Shown: positions 10,198-36,394 of the stretch, piece by piece
How positions within the stretch are numbered: the stretch's first letter is position 1
Layout: every line of letters begins with the position of its first letter
Assembly: GCA_033675265.1 (NCBI GenBank)
Contig: JAUJYZ010001087.1
Location: forward strand, 644,501 to 708,500
DNA length: 64,000 nt
Direction: 5' to 3'
From: Actinostola sp. cb2023
Taxonomy: Eukaryota; Cnidaria; Anthozoa; Actiniaria; Actinostolidae
Translations under genes and position numbers: made by a program
The notes under the pieces: model-generated
What the model was told of the DNA's origin: nothing
Databases searched by the model: none
The model's input: only the letters and a program-made list of their open reading frames with translations

Positions 10198-13100
10198 GAA
10201 ACCTACTGTATTACATGGCCTGAATCTATCGGAGAACTTCAGAAGAGTTACGGCGTAAAAATACCTACCTGACATACAAACCTACTCCATTACATACCTG
10301 GATCTATCTGAGAAAAGCATCAATCCACATATCCCTACCTACCTGACATGCAAACCTACTCCATTACATGCCTGGATCTATCTGAGAAAAGCATCAATCC
10401 ACATATTCCTACCTACCTGACATACAAACCTACTCCATTACATACCTGGATCTATCTGAGAAAAGCATCACCCCACATATCCCTATACCTACCTGACATG
10501 CAAACCTACTCCATTGGCCACTACAAAAAAGAGCAGGGGACTGGGAACGAGTTTATTAGAAGAAAAGTAATTACGAAATTACCTTTATGACATGAAACCA
10601 TGTTGATACCTGGATCTATCTGAGAAAAGCATCAATCCACATATTGATGTGATTTGAGTGAATCCTCGGAATTATAAACTATTTGAAAATTTGACATTTT
10701 ACAGTGAACTACTATGGTACCTCCAGTTTGGGTAGACAACGTATCCCTAAAAAAATATGAGATTGTATGGGAAAAGCATACATCCACATGCCCCTACATA
10801 CCTCAACATGCAAAACCTACTCCATTTACATGCCTGGATCTATCTGAGAAAAAAAGCATCCCCCACTTTTGCTACCTTTCTTATTGAATTAGTTTTACGG
10901 ACTTGGTCCCAGTCCCCTGCTCTTTTTTGTAATGGCCAATTACATGCCTGGATCTATCTGAGAAAAGCATCAATCCACATATCCCTACCTACCTGACATA
11001 CAAACCTACTCCATTACATGCCTGGATCTATCTGAGAAAAGCATCAATCCACATATCCCTACCTACCTGACATACAAACCTACTCCATTACATACCTGGA
11101 TCTATCTGAGAAAAGCATCAATCCACATATCCCTACCTACCTGACATGCAAACCTACTCCATTACATGCCTGGATCTATCTGAGAAAAGCATCAATCCAC
11201 ATATCCCTACCTACCTGACATGCAAACCTACTCCATTACATACCTGGATCTATCTGAGAAAAGCATCAATCCACATATCCCTACCTACCTGACATGCAAA
11301 CCTACTCCATTACATGCCTGGATCTATCTGAGAAAAGCATCAATCCACATATCCCTACCTACCTGACATGCAAACCTACTCCATTACATACCTGGATCTA
11401 TCTGAGAAAAGCATCAATCCACATATCCCTACCTACCTGACATGCAAACCTACTCCATTACATGCCTGGATCTATCTGAGAAAAGCATCAATCCACATAT
11501 CCCTATACCTACCTGACATACAAACCTACTCCATTACATACCTGGATCTATCTGAGAAAAGCATCATCCCACATATCCCTATACCTACCTGACATGCAAA
11601 CCTACTCCATTACATGCCTGGATCTATCTGAGAAAAGCATCATCCACATATCCCTACCTACCTGACATGCAAACCTACTCCATTACATGCCTGGATCTAT
11701 CTGAGAAAAGCATCATCCCACATATCCCTATACCTACCTGACATGCAAACCTACTCCATTACATGCCTGGATCTATCTGAGAAAAGCATCATCCCACATA
11801 TCCCTACCTACCTGACATGCAAACCTACTCCATTACATACCTGGATCTATCTGAGAAAAGCATCATCCCACATATCCCTACCTACCTGACATGCAAACCT
11901 ACTCCATTACATGCCTGGATCTATCTGAGAAAAGCATCATCCCACATATCCCTACCTACCTGACATGCAAACCTACTCCATTACATACCTGGATCTATCT
12001 GAGAAAAGCATCAATCCACATATCCCCCTACCTACCTGACATGCAAACCTACTCCATTACATACCTGGATCTATCTGAGAAAAGCATCAATCCACATATC
12101 CCTACCTACCTGACATGCAAACCTACTCCATTACATACCTGGATCTATCTGAGAAAAGCATCAATCCACATATCCCTACCTACCTGACATGCAAACCTAC
12201 TCCATTACATGCCTGGATCTATCTGAGAAAAGCATCATCCCACATATCCCTACCTACCTGACATGCAAACCTACTCCATTACATACCTGGATCTATCTGA
12301 GAAAAGCATCAATCCACATATCCCTACCTACCTGACATGCAAACCTACTCCATTACATACCTGGATCTATCTGAGAAAAGCATCAATCCACATATCGCTA
12401 CCTACCTGACATGCAAACCTACTCCATTACATGCCTGGATCTATCTGAGAAAAGCATCATCCCACATATCCCTACCTACCTGACATGCAAACCTACTCCA
12501 TTACATACCTGGATCTATCTGAGAAAAGCATCAATCCACATATCCCTACCTACCTGACATGCAAACCTACTCCATTACATACCTGGATCTATCTGAGAAA
12601 AGCATCAATCCACATATCGCTACCTACCTGACATGCAAACCTACTCCCTACTCCATTACATACCTGGATCTATCTGAGAAAAGCATCAATCCACATATCC
12701 CTACCTACCTGACATGCAAACCTACTCCATTACATGCCTGGATCTATCTGAGAAAAGCATCATCCCACATATCCCTACCTACCTGACATGCAAACCTACT
12801 CCATTACATACCTGGATCTATCTGAGAAAAGCATCAATCCACATATCCCCTACCTACCTGACATGCAAACCTACTCCATTACATGCCTGGATCTATCTGA
12901 GAAAAGCATCAATCCACATATCCCTACCTACCTGACATGCAAACCTACTCCATTACATACCTGGATCTATCTGAGAAAAGCATCACCCCACATATCCCTA
13001 TACCTACCTGACATGCAAACCTACTCCATTACATGCCTGGATCTATCTGAGAAAAGCATCAATCCACATATCCCTACCTACCTGACATGCAAACCTACTC

Positions 13101-16100
13101 CATTACATGGCTGGATCTATCTGAGAAAAGCATCAATCCACATATCCCTACCTACCTGACATGCAAACCTACTCCATTACATGCCTGGATCTATCTGAGA
13201 AAAGCATCAATCCACATATATCCCTACCTACCTGACATGCAAACCTACTCCATTACATACCTGGATCTATCTGAGAAAAGCATCAATCCACATATCCCTA
13301 CCTACCTGACATGCAAACCTACTCCATTACATACCTGGATCTATCTGAGAAAAGCATCACCCCACATATCCCTATACCTACCTGACATGCAAACCTACTC
13401 CATTACATGCCTGGATCTATCTAAGAAAAGCATCACCCCACATATCCCTATACCTACCTGACATGCAAACCTACTCCATTACATGCCTGGATCTAACTGA
13501 GAAAAGCATCAATCCACATATCCCTACCTACCTGGCATACAAACCTACTCCATTACATGCCTGGATCTATCTGAGAAAAGCATCATCCCACATATCCCTA
13601 CCTACCTGACATGCAAACCTACTCCATTACATACCTGGATCTATCTGAGAAAAAAGCATCATCCCACATATCCCTACCTACCTGACATGCAAACCTACTC
13701 CATTACATGCCTGGATCTATCTAAGAAAAGCATCACCCCACATATCCCTATACCTACCTGACATGCAAACCTACTCCATTACCTGCCTGGATCTAACTGA
13801 GAAAAGCATCAATCCACATATCCCTACCTACCTGGCATACAAACCTACTCCATTACATACCTGGATCTATCTGAGAAAAGCATCATCCCACATATCCCTA
13901 CCTACCTGACATGCAAACCTACTCCATTACATGCCTGGATCTAACTGAGAAAAGCATCACCCCACATATCCCTATACCTACCTGACATGCAAACCTACTC
14001 CATTACATGCCTGGATCTATCTGAGAAAAGCATCAATCCACATATCCCTACCTACCTGACATACAAACCTACTCCATTACATACCTGGATCTATCTGAGA
14101 AAAGCATCACCCCACATATCCCTATACCTACCTGACATGCAAACCTACTCCATTACATGCCTGGATCTATCTGAGAAAAGCATCAATCCACATATCCCTA
14201 CCTACCTGACATGCAAACCTACTCCATTACATGGCTGGATCTATCTGAGAAAAGCATCAATCCACATATCCCTACCTACCTGACATGCAAACCTACTCCA
14301 TTACATACCTGGATCTATCTGAGAAAAGCATCAATCCACATATCCCTACCTACCTGACATGCAAACCTACTCCATTACATGCCTGGATCTATCTGAGAAA
14401 AGCATCAATCCACATATCCCTACCTACCTGACATGCAAACCTACTCCATTACATGGCTGGATCTATCTGAGAAAAGCATCAATCCACATATCCCTACGTA
14501 CCTGACATGCAAACCTACTCCATTACATACCTGGATCTATCTGAGAAAAGCATCAATCCACATATCCCTACCTACCTGACATGCAAACCTACTCCATTAC
14601 ATACCTGGATCTATCTGAGAAAAGCATCACCCCACATATCCCTATACCTACCTTGACATGCAAACCTACTCCATTACATGCCTGGATTTATCTGAGAAAA
14701 GTATCATCCCACATATCCCTACCTACCTGACATGCAAACCTACTCCATTACATGCCTGGATCTATCTGAGAAAAGCATCAATCGCCATATCCCTACCTAC
14801 CTGACATACAAACCTACTCCATTACATACCTGGATCTATCTGAGAAAAGCATCAATCGCCATATCCCTACCTACCTGACATACAAACCTACTCCATTACA
14901 TACCTGGATCTATCTAAGAAAAAAGCATCACCCCACATATCCCTATACCTACCTGACATGCAAACCTACTCCATTACATGCCTGGATCTAACTGAGAAAA
15001 GCATCAATCCACATATCCCTACCTACCTGGCATACAAACCTACTCCATTACATGCCTGGATCTATCTGAGAAAAGCATCATCCCACATATCCCTACCTAC
15101 CTGACATGCAAACCTACTCCATTACATACCTGGATCTATCTGAGAAAAGCATCACCCCACACATATCCCTATACCTACCTGACATGCAAACCTACTCCAT
15201 TACATGCCTGGATCTATCTGAGAAAAGCATCAATCCACATATCCCTACCTACCTGACATACAAACCTACTCCATTACATACCTGGATCTATCTGAGAAAA
15301 GCATCATCCCACATATCCCTACCTACCTGACATGCAAACCTACTCCATTACATGCCTGGATCTATCTGAGAAAAGCATCACCCCACATATCCTATACCTA
15401 CCTGACATGCAAACCTACTCCATTACATGCCTGGATCTATCTGAGAAAAGCATCAATCCACATATCCCTACCTACCTGACATGCAAACCTACTCCATTAC
15501 ATACCTGGATCTATCTGAGAAAAGCATCACCCCACATATCCCTATACCTACCTGACATGCAAACCTACTCCATTACATGCCTGGATCTATCTGAGAAAAG
15601 CATCTACCTACCTGACATACAAAATCCACATATCCCATCACCCCACTACCTACCTGACATGCAAACCTACTCCATTACATGCCTGGATCTATCTGAGAAA
15701 AGCATCAATCCACATATCCCTACCTACCTGACATGCAAACCTACTCCATTACATGCCTGGATCTATCTGAGAAAAGCATCAATCCACATATCCCTACCTA
15801 CCTGACATGCAAACCTACTCCATTACATACCTGGATCTATCTGAGAAAAGCATCAATCCACATATCCCTACCTACCTGACATGCAAACCTACTCCATTAC
15901 ATACCTGGATCTATCTGAGAAAAGCATCAATCCACATATCCCTACCTACCTGACATGCAAACCTACTCCATTACATGGCTGGATCTATCTGAGAAAAGCA
16001 TCAATCCACATATCCCTACGTACCTGACATGCAAACCTACTCCATTACATACCTGGATCTATCTGAGAAAAGCATCAATCCACATATCCCTACCTACCTG

Positions 16101-16493
16101 ACATGAAAAACCTACTCCATTACATACCTGGATCTATCTGAGAAAAGCATCACCCCACATATCCCTATACCTACCTGACATGCAAACCTACTCCATTACA
16201 TGCCTGGATCTATCTGAGAAAAGTATCATCCCACATATCCCTACCTACCTGACATGCAAACCTACTCCATTACATGCCTGGATCTATCTGAGAAAAGCAT
16301 CAATCGCCATATCCCTACCTACCTGACATACAAACCTACTCCATTACATACCTGGATCTATCTGAGAAAAGCATCAATCGCCATATCCCTACCTACCTGA
16401 CATACAAACCTACTCCATTACATACCTGGATCTATCTAAGAAAAGCATCACCCCACATATCCCTATACCTACCTGACATGCAAACCTACTCCA
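10198..16493 (+). repeat. 74-bp satellite array, about 84 units
   Basis: The unit contains GACATGCAAACCTACTCC, ATTACATGCCTGGATCTATC, TGAGAAAAGCATCAATCCAC and ATATCCCTACCTACCT, repeating every 74 bp with a few indel variants. The first units (10198-10265) are highly diverged, and the inner ones are nearly identical, as expected for unequal exchange. Open frames seen on the plus strand are products of the repeat, not genes. On the minus strand each unit holds TTTTCTCAG, 39 bp, then CAGGTAGGT, that is, acceptor-like and donor-like splice signals. The right edge merges with a host exon (16473-16641). Confidence 0.95.
10513..10940. mobile_element. MITE halves split within the satellite
   Basis: ATTGGCCACTACAAAAAAGA at 10513 mirrors the right end at 10921-10940, and both include the CAGGGGACTGGGA block. 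The same family is at 27954-28373. The interior (about 10600-10865) contains diverged 74-bp satellite units, so the MITE has been opened by recombination with the array or is two half-copies. Confidence 0.6.
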
Positions 16494-17706: not shown

Positions 17707-18479
17707 GGTAATGCGATCGTGCATTCGTGCGCATCTTTCCTGCGCATGATATTCAACGGCGATTATCTAAAAATCTAAGTCGGTGACCTATCCTGATTTT
17801 TTCCACTGTAAGTAGGTCAACTAGAGCTAGAAAATATCAAAAAATGAAGACAGGTCTTCGAGCTATTTTTTTAGTAAATCTACGAAGTGTTCATTTTCGA
17901 ACTACTTTTCATTGGTTGGGCTTCCTGTGGTAGAGCTCTTTCAATATGGCGGATCATGCTGCATTTTAATATTCAACGGCGAATATCTAAAAATCTAACA
18001 CGGTGACCTACCCTGATATTTTTACCCTGAGTAGGTATTTACGAAAGCTAAAACATATCAAAAAATGAAGGTAGGTCTTCGAGCTAAATTTTAAGGAAAT
18101 CGCCAAAATGTCCAAAAATAGGATCGTAAAAGGAGGGTCAAAATGTATTCTTTTTGAAATTTTGGCTTTGAAAACTTATTGTTCAACACAATAAAATGAC
18201 AAATTTCGGATTTTTCATTATATTATGTTAACATATGTATCATTTGAAATTATTTATTTTATTATTACCGACCTATATGGACAGCAAGAGCCTGTAATTC
18301 CATTATCCATTTTTGCCAGAAAAGATGGCCGGAAGCCCCATCTTTGAAAATTTTTATCTTCTCAATGGATTCGGTGACCCCCATTTTTTATTTCATTTTT
18401 CTACTCTAGCACTCAAAATCAATATTTGTGCCAAGTTTAAAAAAAATTGTTCGACAAAAAATTGCACGATCGCATTACC
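17707..18479. mobile_element. TTAA-flanked MITE, GGTAATGCGATCGTGCA ends
   Basis: GGTAATGCGATCGTGCA at the left mirrors TGCACGATCGCATTACC at the right. TTAA flanks both ends (17703-17706 and 18480-18483). The interior has an internal duplication around ATTCAACGGCGA (17752 and 17971) and no transposase. The right TTAA is also the left flank of the next element. Confidence 0.8.
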
Positions 18480-18673
18480 TTAAGAGAGGATGTCCGTAAG
18501 AACCGAGAATCTCCCGACAGTTCAAAAAAATCGAATTTTATTTTCTTTCGCCATATCATTCCTTTCGATGATCTCTTTTAGGGAAAAATACTAAAAAGTT
18601 CCAGCGATTTTTATTTTAGGAGAAATTTGCAATTTTTAAAAACCCGCCTGACGACTGAAAATTTTCGGCTAAA

Positions 18674-18940
18674 TTATGAGCCAACTTTGAACGATCGGTG
18701 TGTGTTCACCTCTAGCTCTACAACAACGACATCCATCAACAGTAATAAACGTTTCTTGGTCTTTTCTACTGTACTATTTACTTTTCTGTAACTTTTGTAG
18801 TAATGTTTCAAATTTGGTTTTAAACAGGTATACAGAGCGCCATAAACGGGACGTTGAAATATAGGCAATGTTTGAGGTACGAAAACGGAATCTGGTATAT
18901 ACATTTTTGGAGGAAAACGCCACGGTCCAGTAAGCTTCAC
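18674..18940 (-). CDS. Arm ORF of fold-back family A (left arm)
   Basis: 88 codons, starting MKLTGPWRFPPKMYIPD and ending in VNTHRSFKVGS, lysine- and tyrosine-rich with no recognised domain. The same open frame is in the opposite arm (19887-20153) and in both arms of the second element (37839-38087 minus, 39089-39373 plus). Openness in four copies is suggestive, but arms within one element are homogenised, so independent evidence is two copies. May be non-coding. Confidence 0.25.
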   Translation of the reverse strand: MKLTGPWRFPPKMYIPDSVFVPQTLPIFQRPVYGALYTCLKPNLKHYYKSYRKVNSTVEKTKKRLLLLMDVVVVELEVNTHRSFKVGS

Positions 18941-19886
18941 TTTTGCTCTTTCAGTTTAGAAAGTTTCGAGCTTGGGAATTCAATGTAGCATTTTTGAGAG
19001 AAATAAAACTATTATGGTTGGGACTGCCAAAATTAGCATTAATTTCGACCTGTCACGTTCATTTTTGTCATTAAAACACAAAACGTAATGCACAAAACGA
19101 GTATATTGAACTTTTAGTTGATCACTGCCAACGGATAACAATCTTGGAGTGAATAGGAATGATTTTCAACCATACTTGAGCTATTTCAGCCACATTGAAC
19201 TCCTAAAATATTGAAAATTAGCATATTCATTGATCAAATAAACACCGTAGTCTGGAAATTGTGGTTCTTCACTCTGAAATGCTTAGAATTTGCTCCAAAT
19301 AAGATTTACAAACAATTAAACTGATTTCTAGTTAAAACTGGCGCTTATTGATGAAGAGTTTGGATATTTTGACTGGATGTTCCACTTTGCTGACACGCCA
19401 ATTATGTAACGCAATGTAACTGCTACAAGTCACGCTACTGCACTTCGAATAAAAATTTTGCGGCATGAAATAACAGTTTTAATCATAAAATATCAAACTA
19501 AACAGAATATATATTTGCTTGAAAGAATGGAATTTTGTTTTATCGTCGTTTAGACAAAATTCGTATTTTTTTCTGTGAGATACTGTTATCTGATCGACGA
19601 TCTATGCTAATTTTGACTTTTGCGAGAGTTATTTACGAACGTCGAAGCTCAAATATTGTTGAAAATCATTTCTATTGACTCGAAGATTGTTTTCCATCAG
19701 CAGCAATCAACTAAAAGTGCAATATACTCGTGTTTTGGCATTACGTTTTGTGTTTTAATGACAAAAATGAACGTGACAGGTCGAAATTAATGCTAATTTT
19801 GGCAGTCCCAACCATAATAGTTATATTTCTCAAAAATGCTACATTGAATTCCCAAGCTCGAAACTTTCTAAACTGAAAGAGCAAAA

Positions 19887-20153
19887 GTGAAGCTTACTGG
19901 ACCGTGGCGTTTTCCTCCAAAAATGTATATACCAGATTCCGTTTTCGTACCTCAAACATTGCCTATATTTCAACGTCCCGTTTATGGCGCTCTGTATACC
20001 TGTTTAAAACCAAATTTGAAAAATTACTACAAAAGTTACAGAAAAATAAATAGTACAGTAGAAAAGACCAAGAAACGTTTATTACTGTTGATGGATGTCG
20101 TTGTTGTAGAGCTAGAGGTGAACACACACCGACCGTTCAAAGTTGGCTCATAA
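19887..20153 (+). CDS. Arm ORF of fold-back family A (right arm)
   Basis: Mirror copy of 18674-18940 with a few substitutions (for example NYYKSYRKIN against HYYKSYRKVN). It reads outward toward the right end of the element. No domain recognised. A real gene is possible but unproven. Confidence 0.25.
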   Translation: MKLTGPWRFPPKMYIPDSVFVPQTLPIFQRPVYGALYTCLKPNLKNYYKSYRKINSTVEKTKKRLLLLMDVVVVELEVNTHRPFKVGS

Positions 20154-20349
20154 TTTAGCCGAAAATCTTCAGTCGTCAGGCGGGTTTTTAAAAACTGCAA
20201 ATTTCTCCTAGAATAAAAATCGCTGGAACTTTTTAGTATTTTTCCCTAAAAGAGATCATCGAAAGGAATGAAATGGCGAAAGAAAATAAAATTCGATTTT
20301 TTTGAACTGTCGGGAGATTCTCGGTTCTTACGGACATCCTCTCTTAAGA

Positions 20350-20450
20350 GGATATATACCGTATAAGCGCCCCCCTCGAATAAGCGCCTCCCCCTAGAGG
20401 TCTAAAAATGTTATAAGCGCCCCCCTTCCAATAAGCGCCCCCTCCCCCTA
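20350..20450 (+). repeat. AAGCGCCCC-type terminal repeat, left of Fic element
   Basis: Contains ATAAGCGCCCCCC three or more times plus GCGCCTCCCCCTAGAGGTCT. The same words in the same orientation lie at 26310-26345 and 26900-26945. The Fic element (20599-26266) therefore appears to sit inside an older repeat of this type, bounded by ATACCGTA-like ends. Confidence 0.55.
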
Positions 20451-20635
20451 AAAGAAATTCAGAAACAACACTCTAAAATAAAACTTTACCGATAAACAGA
20501 AACACGGTATACCGTATGTCAATACCGTATATTTACAGTATACCAGTATACAGTTTACCAAGTACCGCACGGTACATGTTTGCTATTTTTATTCACTGTA
20601 TATGAGTAGTAGGAAAGTAAGAGTTCTGCAACATG

Positions 20636-21052
20636 GGTATGGTTGGGTATGGGTATGGTTGGGTATGCATCACCTTGGGTTGGGTATGGTTGGGTATGGG
20701 TATGGTTGGGTATGCATCACCTTGGGTTGGGTATGGTTGGGTATGCATCACCTTGGGTTGGGTATGGTTGGGTATGCATCACCTTGGGTTGGGTATGGTT
20801 GGGTATGGGTATGGTTGGGTATGCATCACCTATGCATCACCTTGGGTTGGGTATGGTTGGGTATGCATCACCTTGGGTTGGGTATGGTTGGGTATGCATC
20901 ACCTTGGGTTGGGTATGGTTGGGTATGCATCACCTTGGGTTGGGTATGGTTGGGTATGCATCACCTTGGGTTGGGTATGGTTGGGTATGCATCACCTTGG
21001 GTTGGGTATGGTTGGGTATGCATCACCTTGGGTTGGGTATGGTTGGGTATGC
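20636..21052 (+). repeat. 31-bp subterminal tandem repeat, about 13 units
   Basis: Unit built from CTTGGGTTGGGTATGG and TTGGGTATGCATCAC. Because 31 is not divisible by three and the unit lacks stops in any frame, all three plus-strand frames are open here. These are not genes. The right TIR has about five units. Confidence 0.9.
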
Positions 21053-21505
21053 CGTGGGGTATGGTGACATCATCAATTATTTTTTATTTTTTATATATCC
21101 AACTTGAGTTCACTTTATAAAAAGTTAAAAGGGACAATAAAAGATCAAATATGACTAAAATAATATATTTCCCGAAGCATTTTTGTTCCGGCCGGCTGGA
21201 GTTCGTTACACATGCAAACAAGTGACGTCACCGAAGGTCTTATTACGCTCTGTTGATCCTTTATTGTTTAGTGGTTTGTAAACCCGCTTTGAATATGAAT
21301 ACTAATTTGGTACATTTTAGAAAACTTCCGAAAGAAGTGGCCCACCAACCACCCTATTTGTTTGGGTAAGTGAAAGTTTTACTCCGGTAGTGTTTTTAAC
21401 ATGTAACTATTGTATATAGATATCAGTCAAGCACCTCTCAGTTATCGGATTAAAATTTGAATAGCGTTGATGCAAGACAACGTAAACACTGGGTTTTTCA
21501 ACAAT

Positions 21506-21511
21506 TTTATT
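21506..21511 (-). promoter_or_regulatory. Poly(A) signal AATAAA for Fic block, within TIR
   Basis: On the minus strand AATAAA lies about 54 bp after the Fic stop codon. The identical TIR sequence gives the AATAAA at 25620-25625 for the right block. Confidence 0.55.
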
Positions 21512-21564
21512 TGTTTTACATGGTTTTACATTATTCTTAATAGTTCTGCCAGTTAGGTATTGAT

Positions 21565-22395
21565 TTAATCACGGCTCTCAATCGTTCTGAACGTCGAGGA
21601 GGTTTCACTACATTTCTTTAAAGAATGCGCAAACATATTTTCTAAATATGTAAAATCATCCGTAAGTCGCGCCCTCCGTAGAATTTTACACCATGTGCGG
21701 TACTCTTCTTCACTGTCTTTTAAACTAAATTCTTCTTGACTGTACCAGACTATAGGGACTGGAAAAGGAAAACCATAGGCTTCCATGATGTACGTGAACA
21801 ACAATCGAATGATACGGCCATTTCCATCACCAAAGGGGTGTATTTCTAATAATGTGTACACCAACCAAGCTAAAAGATGAATCAAATCTTTCAAAGCTTG
21901 TACACCATCGTTCACGCGTTGGCAGTTTATAGTAAACCATCTTTTATTGTACTCGTCAATCAATCTCTGCATTTCTTTTCCAACAGTACTTGTGTAATAA
22001 TGGCTGTTTCCTTCAAATTCTACCAATCGATCGTGACTACTATATTCCCCTATTGTACACGTCAAGTGCTTACGATGATTCATGAGTATCTTGTGAGCTT
22101 CGCATATTAGATTGTTTTCTAGTAATCCACCATCGCGGTCTTTACTCAGTTGATGTAAGTGATTATAAGCTTCAATAAATCCCACGGTATCTCTATAGTG
22201 TAAACTAACACCATCAACAGCTCCATTTTGTATGATCTGATGAATCATTTGCACATCCACCATTCCCGAATTTTCTTGTTTCAAAGACTGACATACATAA
22301 CGAGCTAACATTTCATTGTGCCTCAAAACATCTTGTTGAAATGACTTTATACCAAGACACTCCATGTTGAAATGAGAGCAGAGGAATGAGTACAA
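21565..22395 (-). CDS. Fic-domain protein (predicted AMP-transferase)
   Basis: The 276-aa product carries the complete Fic signature HPFGDGNGRIIR at residues 186-197, with catalytic H186 and phosphate-binding D190/N192/R194/R197. Fic enzymes usually transfer AMP from ATP to hydroxyl side chains of target proteins. An upstream SLKQEN (37-42) fits the [S/T]xxxE[G/N] inhibitory-helix motif of N-terminally autoinhibited Fic proteins, and a CTIGEYSSHDRLVEF stretch (113-127) occupies the place of the substrate-binding flap. No signal peptide or membrane segment is evident. Last gene of the leftward block, 82 bp after the zinc-ribbon gene. Its last ~16 codons and stop lie inside the TIR. Length is normal for a minimal Fic protein. 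Target and role (host manipulation or defence) are unknown. Confidence 0.9.
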   Translation of the reverse strand: MYSFLCSHFNMECLGIKSFQQDVLRHNEMLARYVCQSLKQENSGMVDVQMIHQIIQNGAVDGVSLHYRDTVGFIEAYNHLHQLSKDRDGGLLENNLICEAHKILMNHRKHLTCTIGEYSSHDRLVEFEGNSHYYTSTVGKEMQRLIDEYNKRWFTINCQRVNDGVQALKDLIHLLAWLVYTLLEIHPFGDGNGRIIRLLFTYIMEAYGFPFPVPIVWYSQEEFSLKDSEEEYRTWCKILRRARLTDDFTYLENMFAHSLKKCSETSSTFRTIESRD

Positions 22396-22477
22396 CGTGT
22401 TTATAAAATCACAACACTACCACTCAAATTGATTTAGAAAGTTTTATTTGGGGTTTGCACGACAAAATTCAACTGGA

Positions 22478-23276
22478 TTAATCTTCTTCAGATTCCTGTT
22501 CCCCGTCAAGGAGTTTCAGTTTATTGAATTTTAACGACAGTTCATGAACAGCATCGCAGTCTCTACAACGGCAAAAGGTTGTTTTTGTGGTTTTGACATC
22601 CACTGGGAACACATGCGCACATATGTCGCACTCGACAAGTTGATTCTGACGGCAGTAGTAGCCTTCTCGCCACAGACATCTAGGACATTGTACTATAGGT
22701 ATCGAGTAGAACGGTTTGAAGTCACGACACACGTGACACTCCTTAGGTTCATCATCCGATTCTGAACTTTCCGACTTGCCACTGTCAGATTCTGTTGATG
22801 TGCTTTCTGCCTCAGATTCATCCGTTTCTTCTTCTCCACTCACTCTCATCGTCAGTATCCTCTTCTTCGGGTTGCCTAGCAACCAGATCCGCCAGCAAGT
22901 GCTTGTTTCGTATAAGTGTTTTGTCAATTCCGACTTCCGACAACCCGTTCGTGAATGTTTTGAGTCCTCTCGGGGTTCTGACATCGAGGTTGTAAGGTAA
23001 CATGGCATATTCAATGAGTTCTACTATATTGGTCAGGGGAATTCTTCGTTGATGATAAGTCATCTCACCATGAGAATTCCAGTATAAAATACTTTTTGAA
23101 GCAGCAAGACTATGAAGAAAAGCTAGAGCCTTATCTTTCGGGATAGTACTCTGGGAGAGATCCTGCATAACTTCTTCGATATCATCATCGTCAAAAATGT
23201 CCAATTCCGAGGAACTCTTTTCAGAATAAACTGAACTTTCTTCAGAGCTAGTAGAATCGACTCTTAATCTCTTCAT
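22478..23276 (-). CDS. Acidic zinc-ribbon protein, frameshifted between two halves
   Basis: Two overlapping frames form one gene. The first (23276-22818) starts MKRLRVDSTSSEE, has a Ser/Asp/Glu-rich leader (ELDIFDDDDIEEV) and a globular segment with NLDVRTPRGLKTF. The second (in the frame ending at 22478) continues the acidic stretch EEETDESEAESTSTESD into a Cys-rich domain: CHVC, CPRC, C, CDIC, CRCRDC, then an acidic tail EQESEED. The eight or more cysteines in CxxC pairs suggest two zinc ribbons. The frames meet near 22836-22850 (minus-strand GAGAGTGAGTGG); a one-base indel would join them, and a GTGAGT donor-like site also lies there. Middle gene of the leftward block. Function unknown. 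Confidence 0.7.
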
Positions 23277-23332
23277 GTTGCTTCCTCAGGTAGTCAAGGT
23301 AAAATGAAGGTTTTCTTTCAAGAAGAGGTTAT

Positions 23333-23626
23333 TTATAACAAAAACAGGCTCAAAGCTGACATCAGCGGTGACATGACATCGGACACAAATCCCCCACCGT
23401 GTTGGGCTAGAGTTCGTTTCTTGGTTTTGAAAGGAATTGAGGAGTCCGCTAATTCTCGTATGACATCCACATGTGGTCTTAGTCTTTCTTTTTGTCCAAC
23501 CGTAACCGTAAGAGTGCCCATACACAAATTCAAACACACTTCACAAATGACATGAACCTGTTCTGGACTAGCGGAGGCCAGTAATAAATATCTTTGATGG
23601 GGAGGACAATGTGCTAAATGATGCAA
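23333..23626 (-). CDS. pX-like core/capsid-associated protein
   Basis: The 97-aa product starts MHHLAHCPPHQRYLLL and has a helical body (PEQVHVICEVCLNLCMG, KERLRPHVDVIREL), a basic stretch KTKKRTLAQH, a GGGF turn and a hydrophobic C-terminal tail (VMSPLMSALSLFLL). This arrangement resembles the adenovirus pX-like core proteins described in adintoviruses and Polintons, thought to act in genome condensation or membrane interaction. Assignment is by pattern and recollection of the family, not by search. First gene of the leftward block, 56 bp before the zinc-ribbon gene. A second frame over the same DNA (23286-23537) is treated as a shadow. Confidence 0.55.
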   Translation of the reverse strand: MHHLAHCPPHQRYLLLASASPEQVHVICEVCLNLCMGTLTVTVGQKERLRPHVDVIRELADSSIPFKTKKRTLAQHGGGFVSDVMSPLMSALSLFLL

Positions 23627-24190
23627 ATAACCAAAATTTTGACATAGTAGTTGACTCGTGTTGTCTCTATGGAAGACTTATTCAAATGAACCTTATTTAG
23701 AGAAACTATGCTATTTATTGAGTTATCTGATAGATTAGCGAGGGGAAAGAAGGGAATGAGTAGGAGGAGGAATGAATGAGGAGGAGTGAATGAGTAGGAG
23801 GAGGAGTGAATGAGTAGGAGGAGGAGTGAATGAGGAGGAGGAGTGAATGAGGAGGAGGAGGAGGAGTGAATGAGTAGGAGGAGGAGTGAATGAGTAGGAG
23901 GAATGAATGAGGAGGAGGAGGAGGAGGTGTGAATGAATGAGGAGGAGGAGGAGGTGTGAATGAATGAGGAGGAGGAGGAGGAGTAAATGATGAGGAGGAG
24001 GAGGAGGAGGAGGAGGAGGAGGGAGGGAGGAGGAGGAGGAGGAGGAGGAGGAGGAGGAGGAGGAGGAGGAGGACGAGGAGGACGAGGAGGATATTTACCA
24101 ATGAGAATTGCGATTTTGAAAAAATAAACTATAAAAAATTGTGTATATATTGTTTCTACTCATTCTACCGATTGCTTCTGTGCAGTAAAC
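23627..24190. promoter_or_regulatory. Central divergent promoter region
   Basis: Both gene blocks start here and read away from each other, so promoters for both must lie in this ~560 bp. Right side: AT-rich ACTATAAAAAATTGTGTATATA (24129-24150, shown in part) about 45 bp before the ATPase ATG. Left side: GCTATTTATTGAG near 23710. A GGA repeat occupies most of the middle. No experimentally defined element is recognisable. Confidence 0.4.
23749..24086 (+). repeat. (GGA)n / GAGTGAAT compound microsatellite
   Basis: Purine-only GGAGGA runs are mixed with GTGAATGA words. The minus strand reads open (poly-Leu, Ser, Pro) only because of composition. Long polypurine tracts can form triplexes. This one sits exactly between the two divergent gene blocks. 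Confidence 0.9.
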
Positions 24191-24979
24191 ATGAATTGTC
24201 CAGAGCGTGGTAAAGAATTTTCGAGAAATGATAATCTTAAAAGACACATTAATAACAAACACAAATTCCAGAAATCTCCAAAATCAGAGATTGCTTCATC
24301 TTGTACAACCTTTCAGTTACTCCACCCCTTCACGGCTATCGTGGCGGGAATGACTGGATCTGGAAAAACCGTCTGGGTTCAGAACTTACTTCAACACGCA
24401 AGTAGAGTCATTCAACCTCCCCCTCAACGTATTTTATGGAGCTATTCACAATGGCAACCGACCTATGAGCAAATGCAGCAGACTCTACCAGGGATCGAGT
24501 TTGTCAAAGGCATCCCTCACGACCTGGACGAGGATTGGTATTTTGATCCCAAAGTCAACAATCTGATAGTCATTGACGACCAAATGGCCGATAACTCCAA
24601 CGACAAAAGAATTATGAATTTATTCACCAAAGGATCTCATCACCGAAACCTCAGTGTCATTTTCCTCTGTCAGAATGTCTACTTTCAAGGCAAAATCATG
24701 CGCACGTTGAGTTTGAATGCCGCGTACCTAGTTCTGTTTAAAAACCCAAGAGACAAACTACAAATAACAACGTTGGGAAAACAGATGTACCCTGGCAAAA
24801 CCGACCAGTTTCTTCATAAGTATGAAGCGGCTGTCGAACGGCCTTACGGCTACCTCTTTGTAGATCTCAAACCCAACACTCCAGAGGAGTGTCGACTGCG
24901 TACTAATGTTCTTCCCAACGATCCCCCACAGACTGGGGGTCAATTGGATGCGATGAAGACCATCGGTAACTTTTTTTAA
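24191..24979 (+). CDS. A32/FtsK-HerA-type packaging ATPase with N-terminal zinc finger
   Basis: The 262-aa protein has Walker A GMTGSGKT at 53-60, Walker B NLIVIDD at 124-130, and a FLCQN segment (158-162) with the sensor Gln expected for A32-like DNA-packaging ATPases. These enzymes pump DNA into viral capsids. The N-terminus is a C2H2-like finger (C3, F10, L16, H19, H24) whose second Cys is Arg (CPERG). The ATG at 24191 follows an AT-rich region. First gene of the rightward block, 36 bp before the proline-rich gene. All catalytic motifs are intact. Similar ATPases occur in Polinton/adintovirus elements. I did not see the capsid genes that normally accompany it. Confidence 0.85.
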   Translation: MNCPERGKEFSRNDNLKRHINNKHKFQKSPKSEIASSCTTFQLLHPFTAIVAGMTGSGKTVWVQNLLQHASRVIQPPPQRILWSYSQWQPTYEQMQQTLPGIEFVKGIPHDLDEDWYFDPKVNNLIVIDDQMADNSNDKRIMNLFTKGSHHRNLSVIFLCQNVYFQGKIMRTLSLNAAYLVLFKNPRDKLQITTLGKQMYPGKTDQFLHKYEAAVERPYGYLFVDLKPNTPEECRLRTNVLPNDPPQTGGQLDAMKTIGNFF

Positions 24980-25015
24980 CGTCAAGGGTATTTACAGTCA
25001 CCCCTCTTAAAGGCC

Positions 25016-25594
25016 ATGCAGAATCTACAAGAGCAGATGGACCACATTTTAAAAGACCCCAGTGTTCCTCCAGAGGTGAAAGTGAAAGAATACACTTCAC
25101 TGTTTAATCGCTACCTCCACCTCGAACAACAACTACCGAACAGTGTGGTGGTCAGACCCAGGCAAGAAGCAGTCCTACCACCGTTGGCTGATGAAAGTCA
25201 TCTGTCGGCTTTTAAAACCCCAGAAAATGTTCCCTCGACAAGTCTAAGTCCTGATAGCGGATTTGTAACATCTAAACCACCTTCCATGTTACAACGCCTC
25301 ACCTCTAAAATTAGAATACCATCTACTTCGAGACCATCGACTTCAGTTGAGGTTCCTTCCACTCCAATAAGAGCCCATTCAGAAATGGGGCAACCAACCT
25401 CCTTGTTCAATACACCAAACACTCCATCTGGTCCACCCATATTTCCACCCACTCCCCCACCAAGTACAGAAAAACCCATCAAGTGGATACCTTATCGGGA
25501 TGCCCATAAATACGAAGATGTAGTGATACCTCCTCGACGTTCAGAACGATTGAGAGCCGTGATTAAATCAATACCTAACTGGCAGAACTATTAA
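25016..25594 (+). CDS. Proline/serine-rich protein downstream of ATPase
   Basis: 192 aa. The N-terminal helical segment (MQNLQEQMDHILKDP, VKEYTSLFNRYLHLEQQL, residues 1-41) is followed by a disordered Ser/Pro/Thr-rich middle (PPIFPPTPPPSTEKP) and a C-terminal basic part (PPRRSERLRAVIKSIPNW). The helical head followed by a disordered tail is, as I recall, typical of small structural genes next to packaging ATPases in adintovirus-like elements. The function is unknown. The last ~25 codons lie in the TIR, and AATAAA at 25620 follows the stop. Confidence 0.6.
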   Translation: MQNLQEQMDHILKDPSVPPEVKVKEYTSLFNRYLHLEQQLPNSVVVRPRQEAVLPPLADESHLSAFKTPENVPSTSLSPDSGFVTSKPPSMLQRLTSKIRIPSTSRPSTSVEVPSTPIRAHSEMGQPTSLFNTPNTPSGPPIFPPTPPPSTEKPIKWIPYRDAHKYEDVVIPPRRSERLRAVIKSIPNWQNY

Positions 25595-26266
25595 GAATAA
25601 TGTAAAACCATGTAAAACAAATAAAATTGTTGAAAAACCCAGTGTTTACGTTGTCTTGCATCCGCGCTATTCAAATTTTAATCCGATAACTGAGAGGTGC
25701 TTGACTGATATCTATATACAATAGTTACATGTTGAAAACACTACCGGAGTAAAACTTTCACCCAAACAAATAGGGTGGTTGGTGGGCCACTTCTTTCGGA
25801 AGTTTTCTAAAATGTACCAAATTAGTATTCATATTCAAAGCGGGTTTACAAACCACTAAACAATAAAGGATCAACAGAGCGTAATAAGACCTTCGGTGAC
25901 GTCACTTGTTTGCATGTGTAACGAACTCCAGCCGGCCGGAACAAATGCTTCGGGAAATATATTATTTTAGTCATATTTGATCTTTTATTGTCCCTTTTAA
26001 CTTTTTATAAAGTGAACTCAAGTTGGATATATAAAAAATAAAAAATAATTGATGATGTCACCATACCCCACGGCATACCCAACCCAAGGTGATGCATACC
26101 CAACCATACCCAACCCAAGGTGATGCATACCCAACCATACCCAACCCAAGGTGATGCATACCCAACCATACCCATACCCATACCCAACCCAAGGTGATGC
26201 ATACCCAACCATACCCATACCCAACCATACCCATGTTGCAGAACTCTTACTTTCCTACTACTTATA
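25518..26266 (-). repeat. Right terminal inverted repeat of Fic element
   Basis: Mirror of 20599-21613, with high identity over the unique part (for example TAAAAGTTAAAAGGGACAAT in the left copy). It includes the end of the proline-rich gene, AATAAA at 25620-25625, and about five 31-bp units at 26064-26235. Confidence 0.9.
25620..25625 (+). promoter_or_regulatory. Poly(A) signal AATAAA for ATPase block, within TIR
   Basis: It lies 26 bp after the stop of the proline-rich gene. The same TIR sequence supplies the signal for the Fic block at the other end. Confidence 0.55.
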
Positions 26267-26344
26267 TGTATGTTACAGTACCGTATATAAGAAAATATTG
26301 AGTTCATCATCTGAGAAAAGAAATAAGCGCCCTGCTTCCAATAC

Positions 26345-26898
26345 GCCCTATGCACGCGTCCTGATTTTCGATATCAGAATACTAGAATCTGTTACATAAA
26401 AATAACCACTGCCATCTGAAAAAGCATTTATTCATCGATATTTTTGGAAAAGTTCAAAAGTATTGGATAAAATCCCGCGAAGATATCATAAATGACATTT
26501 ATAGGGTTTAGTATGGGATTTTCCCGTTATTAGTACACAGCCTCGTTCTGATGTACATCAATTTTCCAAATTGGTTCATTTCAAGGTTTAACACGCCACT
26601 AAAAAGAAGAGATTTATATAAGATAAGTGTAAACGTTTTAGGGCGAAATGTCCTTGCGGAGTTATGAACGTTTTTAATTCTGAAAATACACCAGAACGAG
26701 GCTGTGTACTCATGACGGCAAAATCCCATACTAAACTCTATAAATGTCATTTACGATATCTTCGCGAGATTTTATCCAATACTTTTGAACTTTTCCAAAA
26801 ATATTGATGAATAATTGCTTTTTCAGATGGCAGTGGTTATTTTTATGTGATAGATTCTAGTATTCTGATCTCGAAAATCAGGACGCGTGCATAGGGCG
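26345..26898. mobile_element. Palindromic MITE inserted in AAGCGCC repeat
   Basis: CGCCCTATGCACGCGTCCTG mirrors CAGGACGCGTGCATAGGGCG at the other end; the arms match for about 200 bp each (CAGAACGAGGCTGTGTACT in the inner arm). It splits the word CCAATAAGCGCC, which is intact at 20426-20440, giving an apparent TA target duplication. No coding capacity. Confidence 0.8.
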
Positions 26899-26945
26899 TT
26901 AAGCGCCTCCCCCTAGAGGTCTAAACATTTAATAAGCGCCCGGGA
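26899..26945 (+). repeat. AAGCGCC-type repeat, right of Fic element
   Basis: TAAGCGCCTCCCCCTAGAGG followed by TCTAAACATTTAATAAGCGC, in the same orientation as 20374-20415. It marks the right flank of the older repeat into which the Fic element inserted. Confidence 0.55.
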
Positions 26946-30487: not shown

Positions 30488-30562
30488 TCATTCTACATGG
30501 AAACAAGGTGATGAAAGTCCAGACCGTGATGAGTACCCAGAAGAAATCACTCGCTGGATTCC

Positions 30563-32557
30563 GTGAGTACACAATTGAAGAATTGTAAGAGCAGTATCGA
30601 GAACCCCAGCGACGTGAACGCCATTGAGACTACCTGGAAAGTTCTTGATGGAGCTTGGAATAAGTATGAACAGTGTTATGAATCGTATATTGAACGAGAA
30701 TTACCCGACGAAGAGTTAGAACAAGCGAAATCAATATTTATCAAAACACAAGATGAATGCATTGACACTAAGAGATTAGTGAATGACGTAATAGTGAAAT
30801 TGACAACCTCGAATACATATCAAAAATCGAAAGGATCGAAATCAATCAAGTCAGAATCGTCTAAACAGACAAGAATAAGAGAAATGAAGAGAAAAATTGA
30901 GATGAAAAAGCTAATGCTAGTGCAAGAAGCAGAATTAGCACAGAATGAAATGGAACGAAAAACGATTGAGATGGAATTTGAACAGAAAAAGAGAGCTTGT
31001 GAGCTACGATTTAAAATACAACTAGCAGAAAAGGAAGCTGAATTTTTGGAAGAAGAGAATAGCGAAACAGGAAGCAACTTCAGTCTAGAAAGGGACGGTG
31101 AGCTTAATCTCCTACCACCTCTAGCTGAACAAGAGAAAGTCAAGGCCTGGGTCGACAACCGCCTGCTGAACCATGGGGCAGCAGAACTCCAACCACCATC
31201 TGAAACCCCAGGTGAGCTGATTACCGAGAACAAACCACAAATTGATGCGAAAAGAGAAACCGCTGACACAGAGACTGCAGGCTTAAAAATTGAAAAACAA
31301 GATGCTGACAAGCTGAATGCCAAAAAGCATACTGCACATCAATCTGAACAGATGACCTACAGTTCTGTCCTTCGTAATCAAGCAGTGATGATGAAGTTGA
31401 CGATGCTTCAAGCCATGCAGCCAATTAAGTTTACTGGTAATCCTGCCGACTACCCCACCTTTAGAAACAGACTGAAAGACAATCTAGAAGATGGAATCCT
31501 AAGCGACACCCAGAAGTCAGAGTTCCTCCCTAAATTCCTAAGTGGAGAAACATATGAAGTTGCCGAGAGAATCTCAGGGTGTTCGTATGAAGATACAATG
31601 AAGATCTTGGAACAGCGTTATGGACAGCCGGGTACTGTGGCTGCAGCTTGTATAGAGAACCTGACAAGGGGCCCGAAATTACAGAACACCGACTACACTG
31701 GTCTTCGAAACTTTGCAGAACAACTGGAGTCAGCATCCAGGAAACTACTTGGCGCCTATGAGTCTGAAGTGAGCGCCACAACGAACCTCAAGCAAATCAT
31801 CAGCCGTCTCCCCAACTACCTTATCAACAAGTGGGGGGATACCTCGTACAACATCAGAGAGAGGGGAGCGGCCCCAAAGTTGTCCGACCTGGCAGCCTTT
31901 GTAAAGCGACAAGCTGCAATTAAGAATGATCCCTGCTTTGTAAATTCTGGAAGTACCGAAAGTAAAGTAAGACCGGCACCAAAACAACCTGAAACGTTTG
32001 ACAGAGCACCTGGGTTCCGAAGGCAAACTTCATCCTTTGCTACTAATCTTAAACCAAGTGACCACAGTACAAACCCACCTTTTGATAACCACAACACACT
32101 CTTGCTTTGTTCACTGTGTGCAGGGTCGTGCTGCTCATTGCCCGAATGCCCAGACTTCCAGCGGTGGGGCTTACCGCGCCGCTGGGACCATGTCAAGCGA
32201 ATGAGACTCTGTCACGTGTGCTTAAAACCTGGGAACATGCGAGCAAAATGTGAATCAACAAAATTCTGTAAATGCGGAAGTGACCGACGACATCACCAGC
32301 TACTACACAACCCTCCAAGAACAAGCGAAGATGATGTTGAACAGAATCGTCCTCTAGAAAATAAACGAAACTCAGGGACACAAGAAGTGTCAGATGACAA
32401 ATACATGCACAGCGATCAACAAAGAACAACAGAACAAAGCCATACTGTTACATGTGGTACCAGTAAAGATAATGGCACCGAATGGCAAGTCATTAACAAC
32501 CTACGGACTCCTCGACAATGCCTCGCGCGGAACCGTGATCTGCGTGGATGTAGCTAG
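30563..32557 (+). CDS. gag: BEL-1 gag polyprotein
   Basis: 664 codons. It packages element RNA into virus-like particles in the cytoplasm. Order: N-terminal helical part; long charged coiled coil (about 95-170, MKRKIEMKKLMLVQEAELAQ); DUF1759-type retro-gag domain (about 285-440, from PIKFTGNPADYPTFRNRLKD); and zinc-knuckle-like Cys/His clusters (about 525-605: CSLC, CHVCLKPGNMRAKC, CKCG...HH). The frame opens with GTG at 30563. The likely true start is ATG 30529 (MSTQKKSLAGFREY), which is in another frame and hits a stop near 30586, so the 5' end may hold a further indel. It overlaps pol by 164 nt in a different frame. Confidence 0.85.
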   Translation: MSTQLKNCKSSIENPSDVNAIETTWKVLDGAWNKYEQCYESYIERELPDEELEQAKSIFIKTQDECIDTKRLVNDVIVKLTTSNTYQKSKGSKSIKSESSKQTRIREMKRKIEMKKLMLVQEAELAQNEMERKTIEMEFEQKKRACELRFKIQLAEKEAEFLEEENSETGSNFSLERDGELNLLPPLAEQEKVKAWVDNRLLNHGAAELQPPSETPGELITENKPQIDAKRETADTETAGLKIEKQDADKLNAKKHTAHQSEQMTYSSVLRNQAVMMKLTMLQAMQPIKFTGNPADYPTFRNRLKDNLEDGILSDTQKSEFLPKFLSGETYEVAERISGCSYEDTMKILEQRYGQPGTVAAACIENLTRGPKLQNTDYTGLRNFAEQLESASRKLLGAYESEVSATTNLKQIISRLPNYLINKWGDTSYNIRERGAAPKLSDLAAFVKRQAAIKNDPCFVNSGSTESKVRPAPKQPETFDRAPGFRRQTSSFATNLKPSDHSTNPPFDNHNTLLLCSLCAGSCCSLPECPDFQRWGLPRRWDHVKRMRLCHVCLKPGNMRAKCESTKFCKCGSDRRHHQLLHNPPRTSEDDVEQNRPLENKRNSGTQEVSDDKYMHSDQQRTTEQSHTVTCGTSKDNGTEWQVINNLRTPRQCLARNRDLRGCS

Positions 32558-33986
32558 GAAACTGGGTCTGAAAGGACAAAAAGAACAGATTGCTGTGACG
32601 TTAACCGGAAAAACTGATGAGATTCTAGAAGTTGTAAACTTTAAACTGCAGTCAGCCAGTGGAGCAGGAGAAACTATTGAAGTTGAAGATGGTCTTGTTT
32701 CTGAAAAGTTCAACATATCAGAACAGTATCTCCCCAAGGACATTGACCTCAGCCACCACCCTCACTTAAAGGACATTAAAATTCCTGATGTCGAGATAAG
32801 CAAAGTTTCTGTGCTGATTGGCAAGGACGTTGATTATGCCCATGAGGTGTTGGAAGTGAGGAAATCAAGCACACCCGAGAGTGAACTGAAAGCACTAAGA
32901 GGGCCACTTGGTTGGGTCATCACTGGAACTACTAGAGGAAAAAATGGTCGTAGCCTGCTCAATTTCAACTGTACTGACTATGATAGAAAACTACACGATC
33001 AAGTAGAAAGATTCTGGAAGATGGAAGCATTTGGGACTAAGAGGGCTAGCAAACAAGAGGTAGCTATAGATGGTGCTGTGTCGCCTTACATATCACACGA
33101 TGTATCAAGAGAAGACATGCGAGCAACAGAGATTCTGAGGACAACAGCCAAGTTCACTGATGGTCACTATGAGACGGGATTGCTTTGGCGACATGACGAT
33201 GTGAAACTACCAAGCAACCGTAGAGAAGCAGAAACAAGGTTATCCAGCCTGAAGCGGAAGTTTCGTCAAGAGCCGGAACTTGAAACTAAGTATCGTACAA
33301 CAATGGAAGGCTACATCGCAAAAGGACACGCTCGCAAGTTGTCGCCTGAAGAAGCTAGCAAAGTTGGACCTAGAACATGGTACTTACCGCATTTCGCTGT
33401 TACCAACGAAAACAAGCCTGGTAAGGTACGCATAGTGTTTGATGCAGCAGCAGAACATCATGGAACATCCCTAAACAAGAACCTCTTACAAGGGCCGGAT
33501 TCCACCAACAGTTTGGCAGGTGTGCTGATAAGATTTCGTGAAGATATAGTAGCTGTCGTAGCGGATATCGAAAGCATGTTTCACCAGGTGAGGGTGCGTG
33601 ACAAAGACCAGGATTCACTACGATTTCTGTGGTGGGGTGAAAATACTGAAGAGCCACCTGATGAGTACGTTATGACAGTGCACATTTTCGGAGCTGCGGA
33701 CTCTCCCTGTTCAGCCAATTCAATGTTGAAGAAGACAGCTGATGATAACGAGAAGGACTTTGATCCTGTTACTGTTGAAACTGTACGACATAACTTTTAC
33801 GTTGATGATGTACTAAAATCAGTACCGACAGCATCCGCTGCAACTCGACTAGCTGAACAGCTGACTGAAATATGTGCTAAAGGAGGGTTTAACCTTACCA
33901 AGTTTATGAGCAACAACCGTCAAGTTTTAGCGAAGATACCATCTGAGAAGAGAGCAATGCCGACCCTCAATCTCGACCCCGGATGA
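32394..33986 (+). CDS. pol: BEL-1 pol, part 1: protease and reverse transcriptase
   Basis: 530 codons. Starts with a Peptidase_A17-like domain; the active-site region reads YGLLDNASRGTVIC, with Asp kept but the usual Ser-Gly changed. RT follows: VFDAAAEHHGTSLN, motif A VADIESMFHQVRV, motif B-like HIFGAADSPCSANS and catalytic YVDD (NFYVDDVLKS). It ends abruptly after LNLDPG. The sense continues in the next frame as DDLPVDRALGMRW, so one extra base, probably in the CCCC run 33977-33980, causes the stop. The start ATG is arbitrary because pol is normally fused to gag. Confidence 0.85.
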   Translation: MTNTCTAINKEQQNKAILLHVVPVKIMAPNGKSLTTYGLLDNASRGTVICVDVARKLGLKGQKEQIAVTLTGKTDEILEVVNFKLQSASGAGETIEVEDGLVSEKFNISEQYLPKDIDLSHHPHLKDIKIPDVEISKVSVLIGKDVDYAHEVLEVRKSSTPESELKALRGPLGWVITGTTRGKNGRSLLNFNCTDYDRKLHDQVERFWKMEAFGTKRASKQEVAIDGAVSPYISHDVSREDMRATEILRTTAKFTDGHYETGLLWRHDDVKLPSNRREAETRLSSLKRKFRQEPELETKYRTTMEGYIAKGHARKLSPEEASKVGPRTWYLPHFAVTNENKPGKVRIVFDAAAEHHGTSLNKNLLQGPDSTNSLAGVLIRFREDIVAVVADIESMFHQVRVRDKDQDSLRFLWWGENTEEPPDEYVMTVHIFGAADSPCSANSMLKKTADDNEKDFDPVTVETVRHNFYVDDVLKSVPTASAATRLAEQLTEICAKGGFNLTKFMSNNRQVLAKIPSEKRAMPTLNLDPG

Positions 33987-33987
33987 C

Positions 33988-36066: not shown

Positions 36067-36394
36067 CGAGAAAGACAAGTTCAGCAGAAAACGCTGGCGA
36101 CAAGCCCAGCTGTTATCTAACCACTACTGGAACCGTTGGTTAAAGGAGTACGTGCCTTCCCTACAGGAAAGACAAAAGTGGCACCAGAAACAGAGGAATT
36201 TATGTGAAAACGACTTGGTGCTAGTAGCAGATGACAACGTCCCTAGAAACAAGTGGACCTTGGGAAGGATTGTCAACGCGATTGCAGGCCCTGATGGACT
36301 AGTGAGGACAGTAGAGGTGAAGTCCAATGGCGTAATCCTGAAGCGACCCGCAACCAAGATCTGTCTCCTGGAAGGGGATGAAAATGAACTTTGA
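36056..36394 (+). CDS. pol: BEL-1 pol, part 3: DUF5641-like C-terminus
   Basis: About 112 codons in a third frame. FSRKRWRQAQLLSNHYWNRW, KEYVPSLQERQKW, NDLVLVADDNVPRNKW and a final CLLEGDENEL match the C-terminal domain that follows the integrase in BEL/Pao pol. An equivalent segment ends the pol of BEL-2. The end of the coding region is the TGA at 36392-36394. Confidence 0.85.
   Translation, partial: GVVDEKDKFSRKRWRQAQLLSNHYWNRWLKEYVPSLQERQKWHQKQRNLCENDLVLVADDNVPRNKWTLGRIVNAIAGPDGLVRTVEVKSNGVILKRPATKICLLEGDENEL

What the first reader, a model, noticed from the sequence alone, without database searches (positions are those of the whole stretch)
20599..26266. Virus-like TIR element with Fic enzyme and packaging ATPase but no capsid, polymerase or integrase
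Seen: ~0.75-1.0 kb inverted repeats around five compact intronless genes in two divergent blocks: pX-like, zinc-ribbon and Fic on one side, A32-like ATPase and a Pro-rich protein on the other. Known: A32-type ATPases and pX-like proteins belong to Polinton/adintovirus-like virions; Fic enzymes modify host proteins. Inference: a reduced or satellite-like relative that depends on a helper virus for capsid, replication and integration, and carries a host-manipulating enzyme.
Basis: partly seen in the sequence, partly recalled or inferred. Interest (0 to 1): 0.88.

Follow-up and report, generated by a model that had tools for sequence, protein, structure and literature searches.

The report
Stripped-down Maverick virus relic carrying Fic
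A short virus-derived DNA element, probably in a sea anemone, keeps the mobile ends and DNA-packaging motor of a Maverick virus but shows no polymerase, integrase or shell gene, and it carries an enzyme of a kind that modifies other proteins, so it may have moved as a parasite of a fuller virus.

The parts
20599..20604 (.). left target-site duplication TATATG
20605..21613 (.). left terminal inverted repeat (1,009 bp), starting AGTAGTAGG; holds a minisatellite and, at its inner end, a copy of the 3' end of the ATPase gene
20690..21052. minisatellite (31-bp spacing; listed as 62/93 by TRF) in the left repeat; shorter counterpart in the right repeat
21565..22365 (-). Fic protein, 266 aa, intact; catalytic HPFGDGNGRIIR (H176), probable autoinhibitory SLKQEN (E31); last 15 residues (21612-21568) lie in the inverted repeat
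22478..22849 (-). zinc-ribbon half of the acidic/zinc-ribbon gene
22818..23276 (-). N-terminal ('pX-like') half of the same gene, in another frame than the zinc-ribbon half in this copy
24191..24979 (+). A32/FtsK-type packaging ATPase domain, 262 aa; Walker A GMTGSGKT (53-60), Walker B DD (129-130) (motif names recalled); ends at an in-frame stop where P0006 and P0010 read on
25518..26262 (.). right terminal inverted repeat (745 bp), ending CCTACTACT; its inner end is the native 3' end of the ATPase gene
26263..26268 (.). right target-site duplication TATATG

Best explanation
It is a non-autonomous derivative of a Maverick/Polinton (adintovirus-like) element of a sea anemone or close relative. 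SHOWN: Maverick-type ends, 6-bp duplication, near-identical long inverted repeats, Polinton/adintovirus-type packaging ATPase, intact FICD-like Fic, no recognised polymerase, integrase, protease or capsid gene, and a left end that is a copy of the right end pasted onto a truncated Fic gene. INFERRED: during replication of a protein-primed linear genome the part beyond Fic was lost and the end rebuilt by copying the right terminus (inverted terminal duplication, as in defective genomes of linear protein-primed viruses; recalled). The product keeps both ends, so a full Maverick could replicate, package and integrate it in trans. Its own ATPase may bias helper shells toward its genome. The Fic protein is probably an autoinhibited nucleotidyl (AMP) transferase acting on a host or helper protein. 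This copy has since lost two of its three genes to a stop and a frame change.
Against: No full-length relative with the same TIR was found, so helper and parent are unproven. The shared seam shows that the rebuilt end occurs elsewhere, not that the 5.7-kb form does: a full-length parent could have had the same two ends with its other genes between the pX and ATPase genes. The end motif was published for vertebrates; its use by anthozoan Mavericks is assumed. Two of three genes are broken, which fits ordinary decay. For distant Fic relatives the drop at the border may be ordinary tail divergence (P0148: 14/37 to 3/9). None of the 19 Fic hits is labelled Actinostola, although 8 of the 120 listed ATPase rows and 2 of 15 pX rows are. 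P0007 is a gene model and may span an intron. The contigs of P0140 and P0153 are matched by length only. P0141 is labelled a gammaproteobacterial MAG; I take that as mis-binned DNA, untested. Of the three C. difficile entries, 4x2d and 4x2e would put E31 at 32 and 34, not at the E35 mutated in the titles of 4x2c and 4x2d; 4x2c fits. The pX-like half has no supported homology.
Confidence: 0.65

Rival explanations
1. Simple degraded copy: a full Maverick, perhaps already with the rebuilt end, lost its other genes (for instance between the pX and ATPase genes) by deletion, with no life of the short form as such.
For: Two of three genes are broken. Most vertebrate Mavericks are reported as degraded (PMC8097293, passage). 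The shared seam in P0141 does not exclude it.
Against: The near-identical repeats suggest recent insertion, leaving little time for a large deletion. P0007 has antisense pX and ATPase sequence in the same order in another genome, and P0140/P0153 suggest zinc-ribbon and Fic genes on one short contig. Low-level evidence in each case.
Confidence: 0.29
2. A self-standing small virus or transposon family unrelated to any helper, with Fic or the acidic zinc-ribbon protein doing replication or integration.
For: Compact, intronless, divergent gene blocks; Fic and the zinc-ribbon gene recur in other sequences.
Against: Fic and A32 ATPases are not known replicases or integrases (recalled); the seam shows a cut-off Fic gene; ends are of the Maverick type.
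Confidence: 0.04
3. Host Fic gene that happens to lie beside a Maverick fragment.
For: None beyond adjacency.
Against: Fic lies inside the TIR-bounded unit and its last 15 codons are inside the TIR; no intron; its 15 close relatives are on contigs of 1.2-9.8 kb and none carries a host-gene name, 13 of 15 carrying no name; the best structural match among viral proteins is wsv406.
Confidence: 0.02

Closest known systems
Maverick/Polinton transposons (polintoviruses), adintoviruses
   Same: (AGT)2//(ACT)2 ends, 6-bp duplication, long TIRs, packaging ATPase, intronless genes (PMC8097293 section 7 and passages)
   Different: 5.7 kb instead of 12.7-24.6 kb for intact vertebrate elements; no PolB, integrase, protease or capsid recognised; ATPase kept, whereas nine of the Polintons without capsid genes also lacked ATPase and protease (PMC4028283 passage)
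JAHFML010000006.1 (L001), adintovirus-like contig in a bacterial MAG
   Same: ATPase 42% identical; a nearby protein with a matching coil segment
   Different: has a 1,224-aa PolB; no Fic match among the five main frames scanned on its 7,071 bp; coil segment is in a separate gene, not fused to the ATPase
FICD/HYPE and BT_2513 Fic proteins
   Different: lacks FICD's N-terminal extension (recalled as TPR and membrane parts); 17-20% identity; encoded by a mobile element
Fic-like proteins of large invertebrate DNA viruses: wsv406 (white spot syndrome virus), Oryctes rhinoceros nudivirus
   Same: ranks 1 and 4 among viral fold matches (E 7.4e-9, TM 0.65-0.67; E 5e-4, TM 0.50-0.59)
   Different: viruses of other families with much larger genomes (recalled); 25 and 18% identity
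Virophages and phage satellites (PICI, P4-like; recalled)
   Same: works-like comparison: small genome keeping a packaging function and using a helper
   Different: no helper shown here; not a membership claim

Membership tests
Maverick/Polinton | terminal inverted repeats (46-1,447 bp in intact vertebrate elements) | tested here: met
   1,009 and 745 bp; range from PMC8097293
Maverick/Polinton | 6-bp target-site duplication | tested here: met
   TATATG on both sides
Maverick/Polinton | conserved end motif (AGT)2//(ACT)2 or (AG)3//(CT)3 | tested here: met
   AGTAGT...ACTACT; motif (vertebrate elements)
Maverick/Polinton | FtsK/A32-type packaging ATPase | tested here: met
[quoted passage not shown]
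   no frame or Pfam match in the element; PolB of L001 has no match in the window at E up to 1
Maverick/Polinton | retroviral-like integrase | tested here: not met
   no frame or Pfam match inside the element
Maverick/Polinton | major and minor capsid proteins, adenovirus-like protease | tested here: not met
   no unassigned frame of 120 codons or more except low complexity and minisatellite; no Pfam match; no capsid profile of its own was run
Class II (FICD-like) Fic (class name recalled) | catalytic HPFx[D/E]GNGRxxR | tested here: met
   window: yes; 11 of 16 aligned rows, misses P0143, P0146, P0149, P0150, P0153
Class II (FICD-like) Fic (class name recalled) | N-terminal inhibitory [S/T]xxxE[G/N] | tested here: met
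   SLKQEN; 12 of the 14 rows with letters there, misses P0149, P0154; register with E274 and E73, but not in 4x2d and 4x2e
Class II (FICD-like) Fic (class name recalled) | nucleotidyl transfer to a protein | not testable with these tools
   needs an assay
Helper-dependent satellite | mobilised by a helper that supplies shell, polymerase and integrase | not testable with these tools
   host genome search unanswered in 14 tries; no helper sequence at hand
Helper-dependent satellite | several copies of the reduced form | tested here: inconclusive
   one further Fic with the same seam (P0141) and one Actinostola protein with pX and ATPase sequence in the same order (P0007), but no second complete element seen; none in the window

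The most novel reading that the evidence does not exclude
An animal counterpart of phage satellites: a transmissible lineage of miniature Mavericks, born by terminal duplication, that uses its own packaging ATPase to capture the shells of full Mavericks and carries an autoinhibited, virus-type Fic AMP-transferase to control the host or the helper.
Probability: 0.25. Interest if true: 0.85.

Novelty: new variant of a known kind. Interest (0 to 1): 0.58.

Why it matters
Mavericks are virus-like elements of animal genomes whose particles have not been observed (abstract of PMC8097293 as listed). A reduced form that keeps ends and packaging motor but no shell gene would, if it moves, imply trans-packaging or trans-mobilisation, a testable sign of live Maverick replication. 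The seam gives a molecular record of how such defective genomes can arise. A FICD-like enzyme inside such an element, with fold relatives in shrimp and beetle viruses, points to protein nucleotidylation as a possible shared tactic of invertebrate DNA viruses.

Tried and rejected
Relatives in IMG/VR: scans with the ATPase (single, A1, A4), pX/zinc-ribbon (A2), Fic (A3) and L001 PolB found no confirmed relative; L001's ATPase hit only a 32-residue stretch on a 266-kb contig (L002), not followed.

ATPase against PDB by sequence: three matches, best E 0.027, a P-loop GTPase. PHROGs: Fic matched five families of unknown function (E 3.5e-12 to 2.7e-6) and a Doc-like toxin family (0.0055); ATPase best 0.0022, a terminase.

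Literature: 'Polinton' with 'Fic domain' 0 papers; 'Maverick' with 'AMPylation' 0; six phrases for non-autonomous, defective or satellite Polintons/Mavericks 0; 'Fic', 'nudivirus' and 'white spot syndrome virus' together 0; 'fic domain', 'cnidaria', 'horizontal' 1, a bacterial infection study judged from its listing. Wider searches: one search held 64 papers, 15 listed, of which passages of PMC6431247, PMC4028283 and PMC2836005 were seen; one search held 282, 20 listed, of which only PMC10871703 was searched (0 hits for Fic or wsv406). PMC4028283 mentions an earlier suggestion that Tlr elements are non-autonomous Polinton derivatives, so the idea of such derivatives is not new. PMC11071296 was seen as outline, abstract and passages ('Fic' 0 hits); PMC4642659 as passages. 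Only open-licence PMC papers are held, so absence here is not proof.

Changed on re-checking: the shared seam proves a shared rebuilt end, not a shared short form, so confidence in the best explanation went from 0.74 to 0.65, the decay rival from 0.20 to 0.29, the novel case from 0.28 to 0.25 and interest from 0.60 to 0.58.
Full report
WHAT IS THERE. The outermost matched bases of the two inverted repeats are 20605 and 26262. The left repeat is 20605-21613 and the right 25518-26262. They begin AGTAGTAGGAAAG and end CTTTCCTACTACT, and both outer flanks read TATATG, a perfect 6-bp duplication (chance at one place about 3e-4). The two repeats differ mostly by the number of 31-bp minisatellite units; 553 bp of the rest aligns with 4 mismatches and 2 gap openings. 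No second copy of the tested pieces (unique TIR, Fic side, ATPase side) lies in the window.

THREE GENES, NOT FIVE. The search with the ATPase found 1776 proteins, the best 120 listed. Closest are proteins labelled Actinostola (a sea anemone): 8 of the 120 listed rows. The source of the window was not given; a sea anemone or close relative is my inference. One relative, P0013, ends at the same point, on a 1.3-kb contig; I cannot tell whether that is shared or chance. The search with the pX piece found 15 proteins; P0126 and P0127 (266 aa, Actinostola) carry pX part, acidic stretch and zinc ribbon in one protein, which matches the window as two adjacent stretches in different frames (23276-22839 and 22840-22481 for P0127). 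So this gene is broken too. Fic (21565-22365, minus strand, 266 aa) is intact.

NO RECOGNISED REPLICATION, INTEGRATION OR SHELL GENE. The stop-to-stop frames of at least 120 codons in the element are the pieces above, the low-complexity tract, and TIR minisatellite. Pfam finds only Fic and the ATPase above cut-off in the five products and nothing in three short central frames. The PolB of the fuller relative L001 has no match in the window at E up to 1. Reverse transcriptase and integrase-zinc matches elsewhere in the window are in retroelements (the Pao and Penelope-like names partly mine).

THE MAVERICK LINK. The 2021 survey of vertebrate Mavericks (PMC8097293; section 7 read, passages elsewhere) reports (AGT)2//(ACT)2 as the commonest end motif, perfect 6-bp duplications, TIRs of 46-1,447 bp and intact elements of 12.7-24.6 kb. 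The element meets the first three and falls far short of the last. The ATPase is 42% identical over 202 residues to that of L001 (JAHFML010000006.1, 7,071 bp), which also encodes a 1,224-aa protein with DNA_pol_B_2 (E 1.4e-19), and frames of 303, 181 and 304 aa. A profile of the region behind the ATPase, from the 75 session proteins with more than 100 residues there, matches part of that 304-aa protein at E 1.1e-4 (16.2 bits, 7.3 bits composition correction), against 0.22 for the best of 200 shuffles (0.084 by best single domain). The pX half does not reach significance against the same protein, so I do not call it a Maverick protein. In a 2014 study (PMC4028283, passages) nine Polintons without capsid genes had also lost ATPase and protease; an element that keeps the ATPase without shell genes departs from that pattern.

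THE REBUILT END. On the left minus strand, 21614-21537 reads NVVKPPRRSERLRAVIKSIPNWQNY, like the C-terminus of the ATPase gene, whose native copy on the right reads DVVIPPRRSERLRAVIKSIPNWQNY. P0006 and P0010 end alike and match both places, 88 and 84% over 25 residues on the left. So the left end carries a copy of the right end. The Fic frame runs into this copy in another frame: its last 15 residues are encoded by it. Over the 37 residues before the border P0142 matches 28, after it 1 of 10. In all 12 relatives other than P0141 with residues there the identity after the border is lower than before it, but in distant ones the drop can be small (P0148: 14/37 to 3/9); 10 of the 12 share a tyrosine (C-x-E-Y type tail) that the window lacks. 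P0143 and P0153 have no residues there and are left out. P0141 matches 36 of 37 and 14 of 15. Hence the Fic gene was cut and its end replaced when the right terminus was copied onto the left, and at least one other sequenced molecule descends from that event. This does not prove that the other molecule is also short: a full-length parent with the same ends could have carried its other genes between the pX and ATPase genes. P0007 (Actinostola), whose residues 9-61 are antisense to the pX gene (22839-22997) and 122-406 ATPase (24296-25150), speaks for close neighbourhood of these two genes elsewhere, but it is a gene model and may span an intron. A linear, protein-primed genome whose ends anneal is prone to terminal duplication (recalled from adenovirus defective genomes).

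MECHANISM, WITH LIKELIHOODS (my estimates). Maverick-derived ends and motor: about 0.9. Rebuilt left end by terminal duplication: about 0.85. Mobilised in trans in its reduced form: about 0.5. ATPase used to capture helper shells: about 0.25. This particular copy is now defective in two of three genes.

LIMITS. Copy number, helper and parent therefore remain open.

Noticed in passing
18479-20348 and 37642-39552: Two related (85% identical) elements of about 1.9 kb with inverted repeats of about 700 bp each and no frame of 120 codons: a non-autonomous DNA transposon family; one copy ends about 250 bp left of the Maverick derivative.
   Followed up: partly
26343-26899: Small inverted-repeat element (213-bp arms, 94%) lying in a repeat with the motif ATAAGCGCC that also occurs left of the element near 20364-20450.
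   Followed up: no
10939-16493 and 42159-49719: Long satellite arrays: 74-bp unit (about 62 and 11 copies) and 44-bp unit (about 171 copies, also listed with a 132-bp period).
   Followed up: no
30533-36394 and 56951-60802: LTR-retroelement coding regions, Pao-type by Peptidase_A17 and DUF1759 (first) and DUF5641 with integrase zinc domain (second).
   Followed up: no
2520-3818: Reverse transcriptase with GIY-YIG domain, Penelope-like by my reading.
   Followed up: no
52094-52720: 208-codon frame with several cysteine/histidine pairs and a long acidic tract, no Pfam match at E up to 0.001; could be another viral or host zinc protein.
   Followed up: no
24191-24300: N-terminal zinc-finger stretch of the ATPase differs from that of the otherwise close Actinostola proteins (P0007 match starts only at 24296) and resembles that of P0019; one expected cysteine is not a cysteine. 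The N-terminus seems to be exchanged between lineages.
   Followed up: partly
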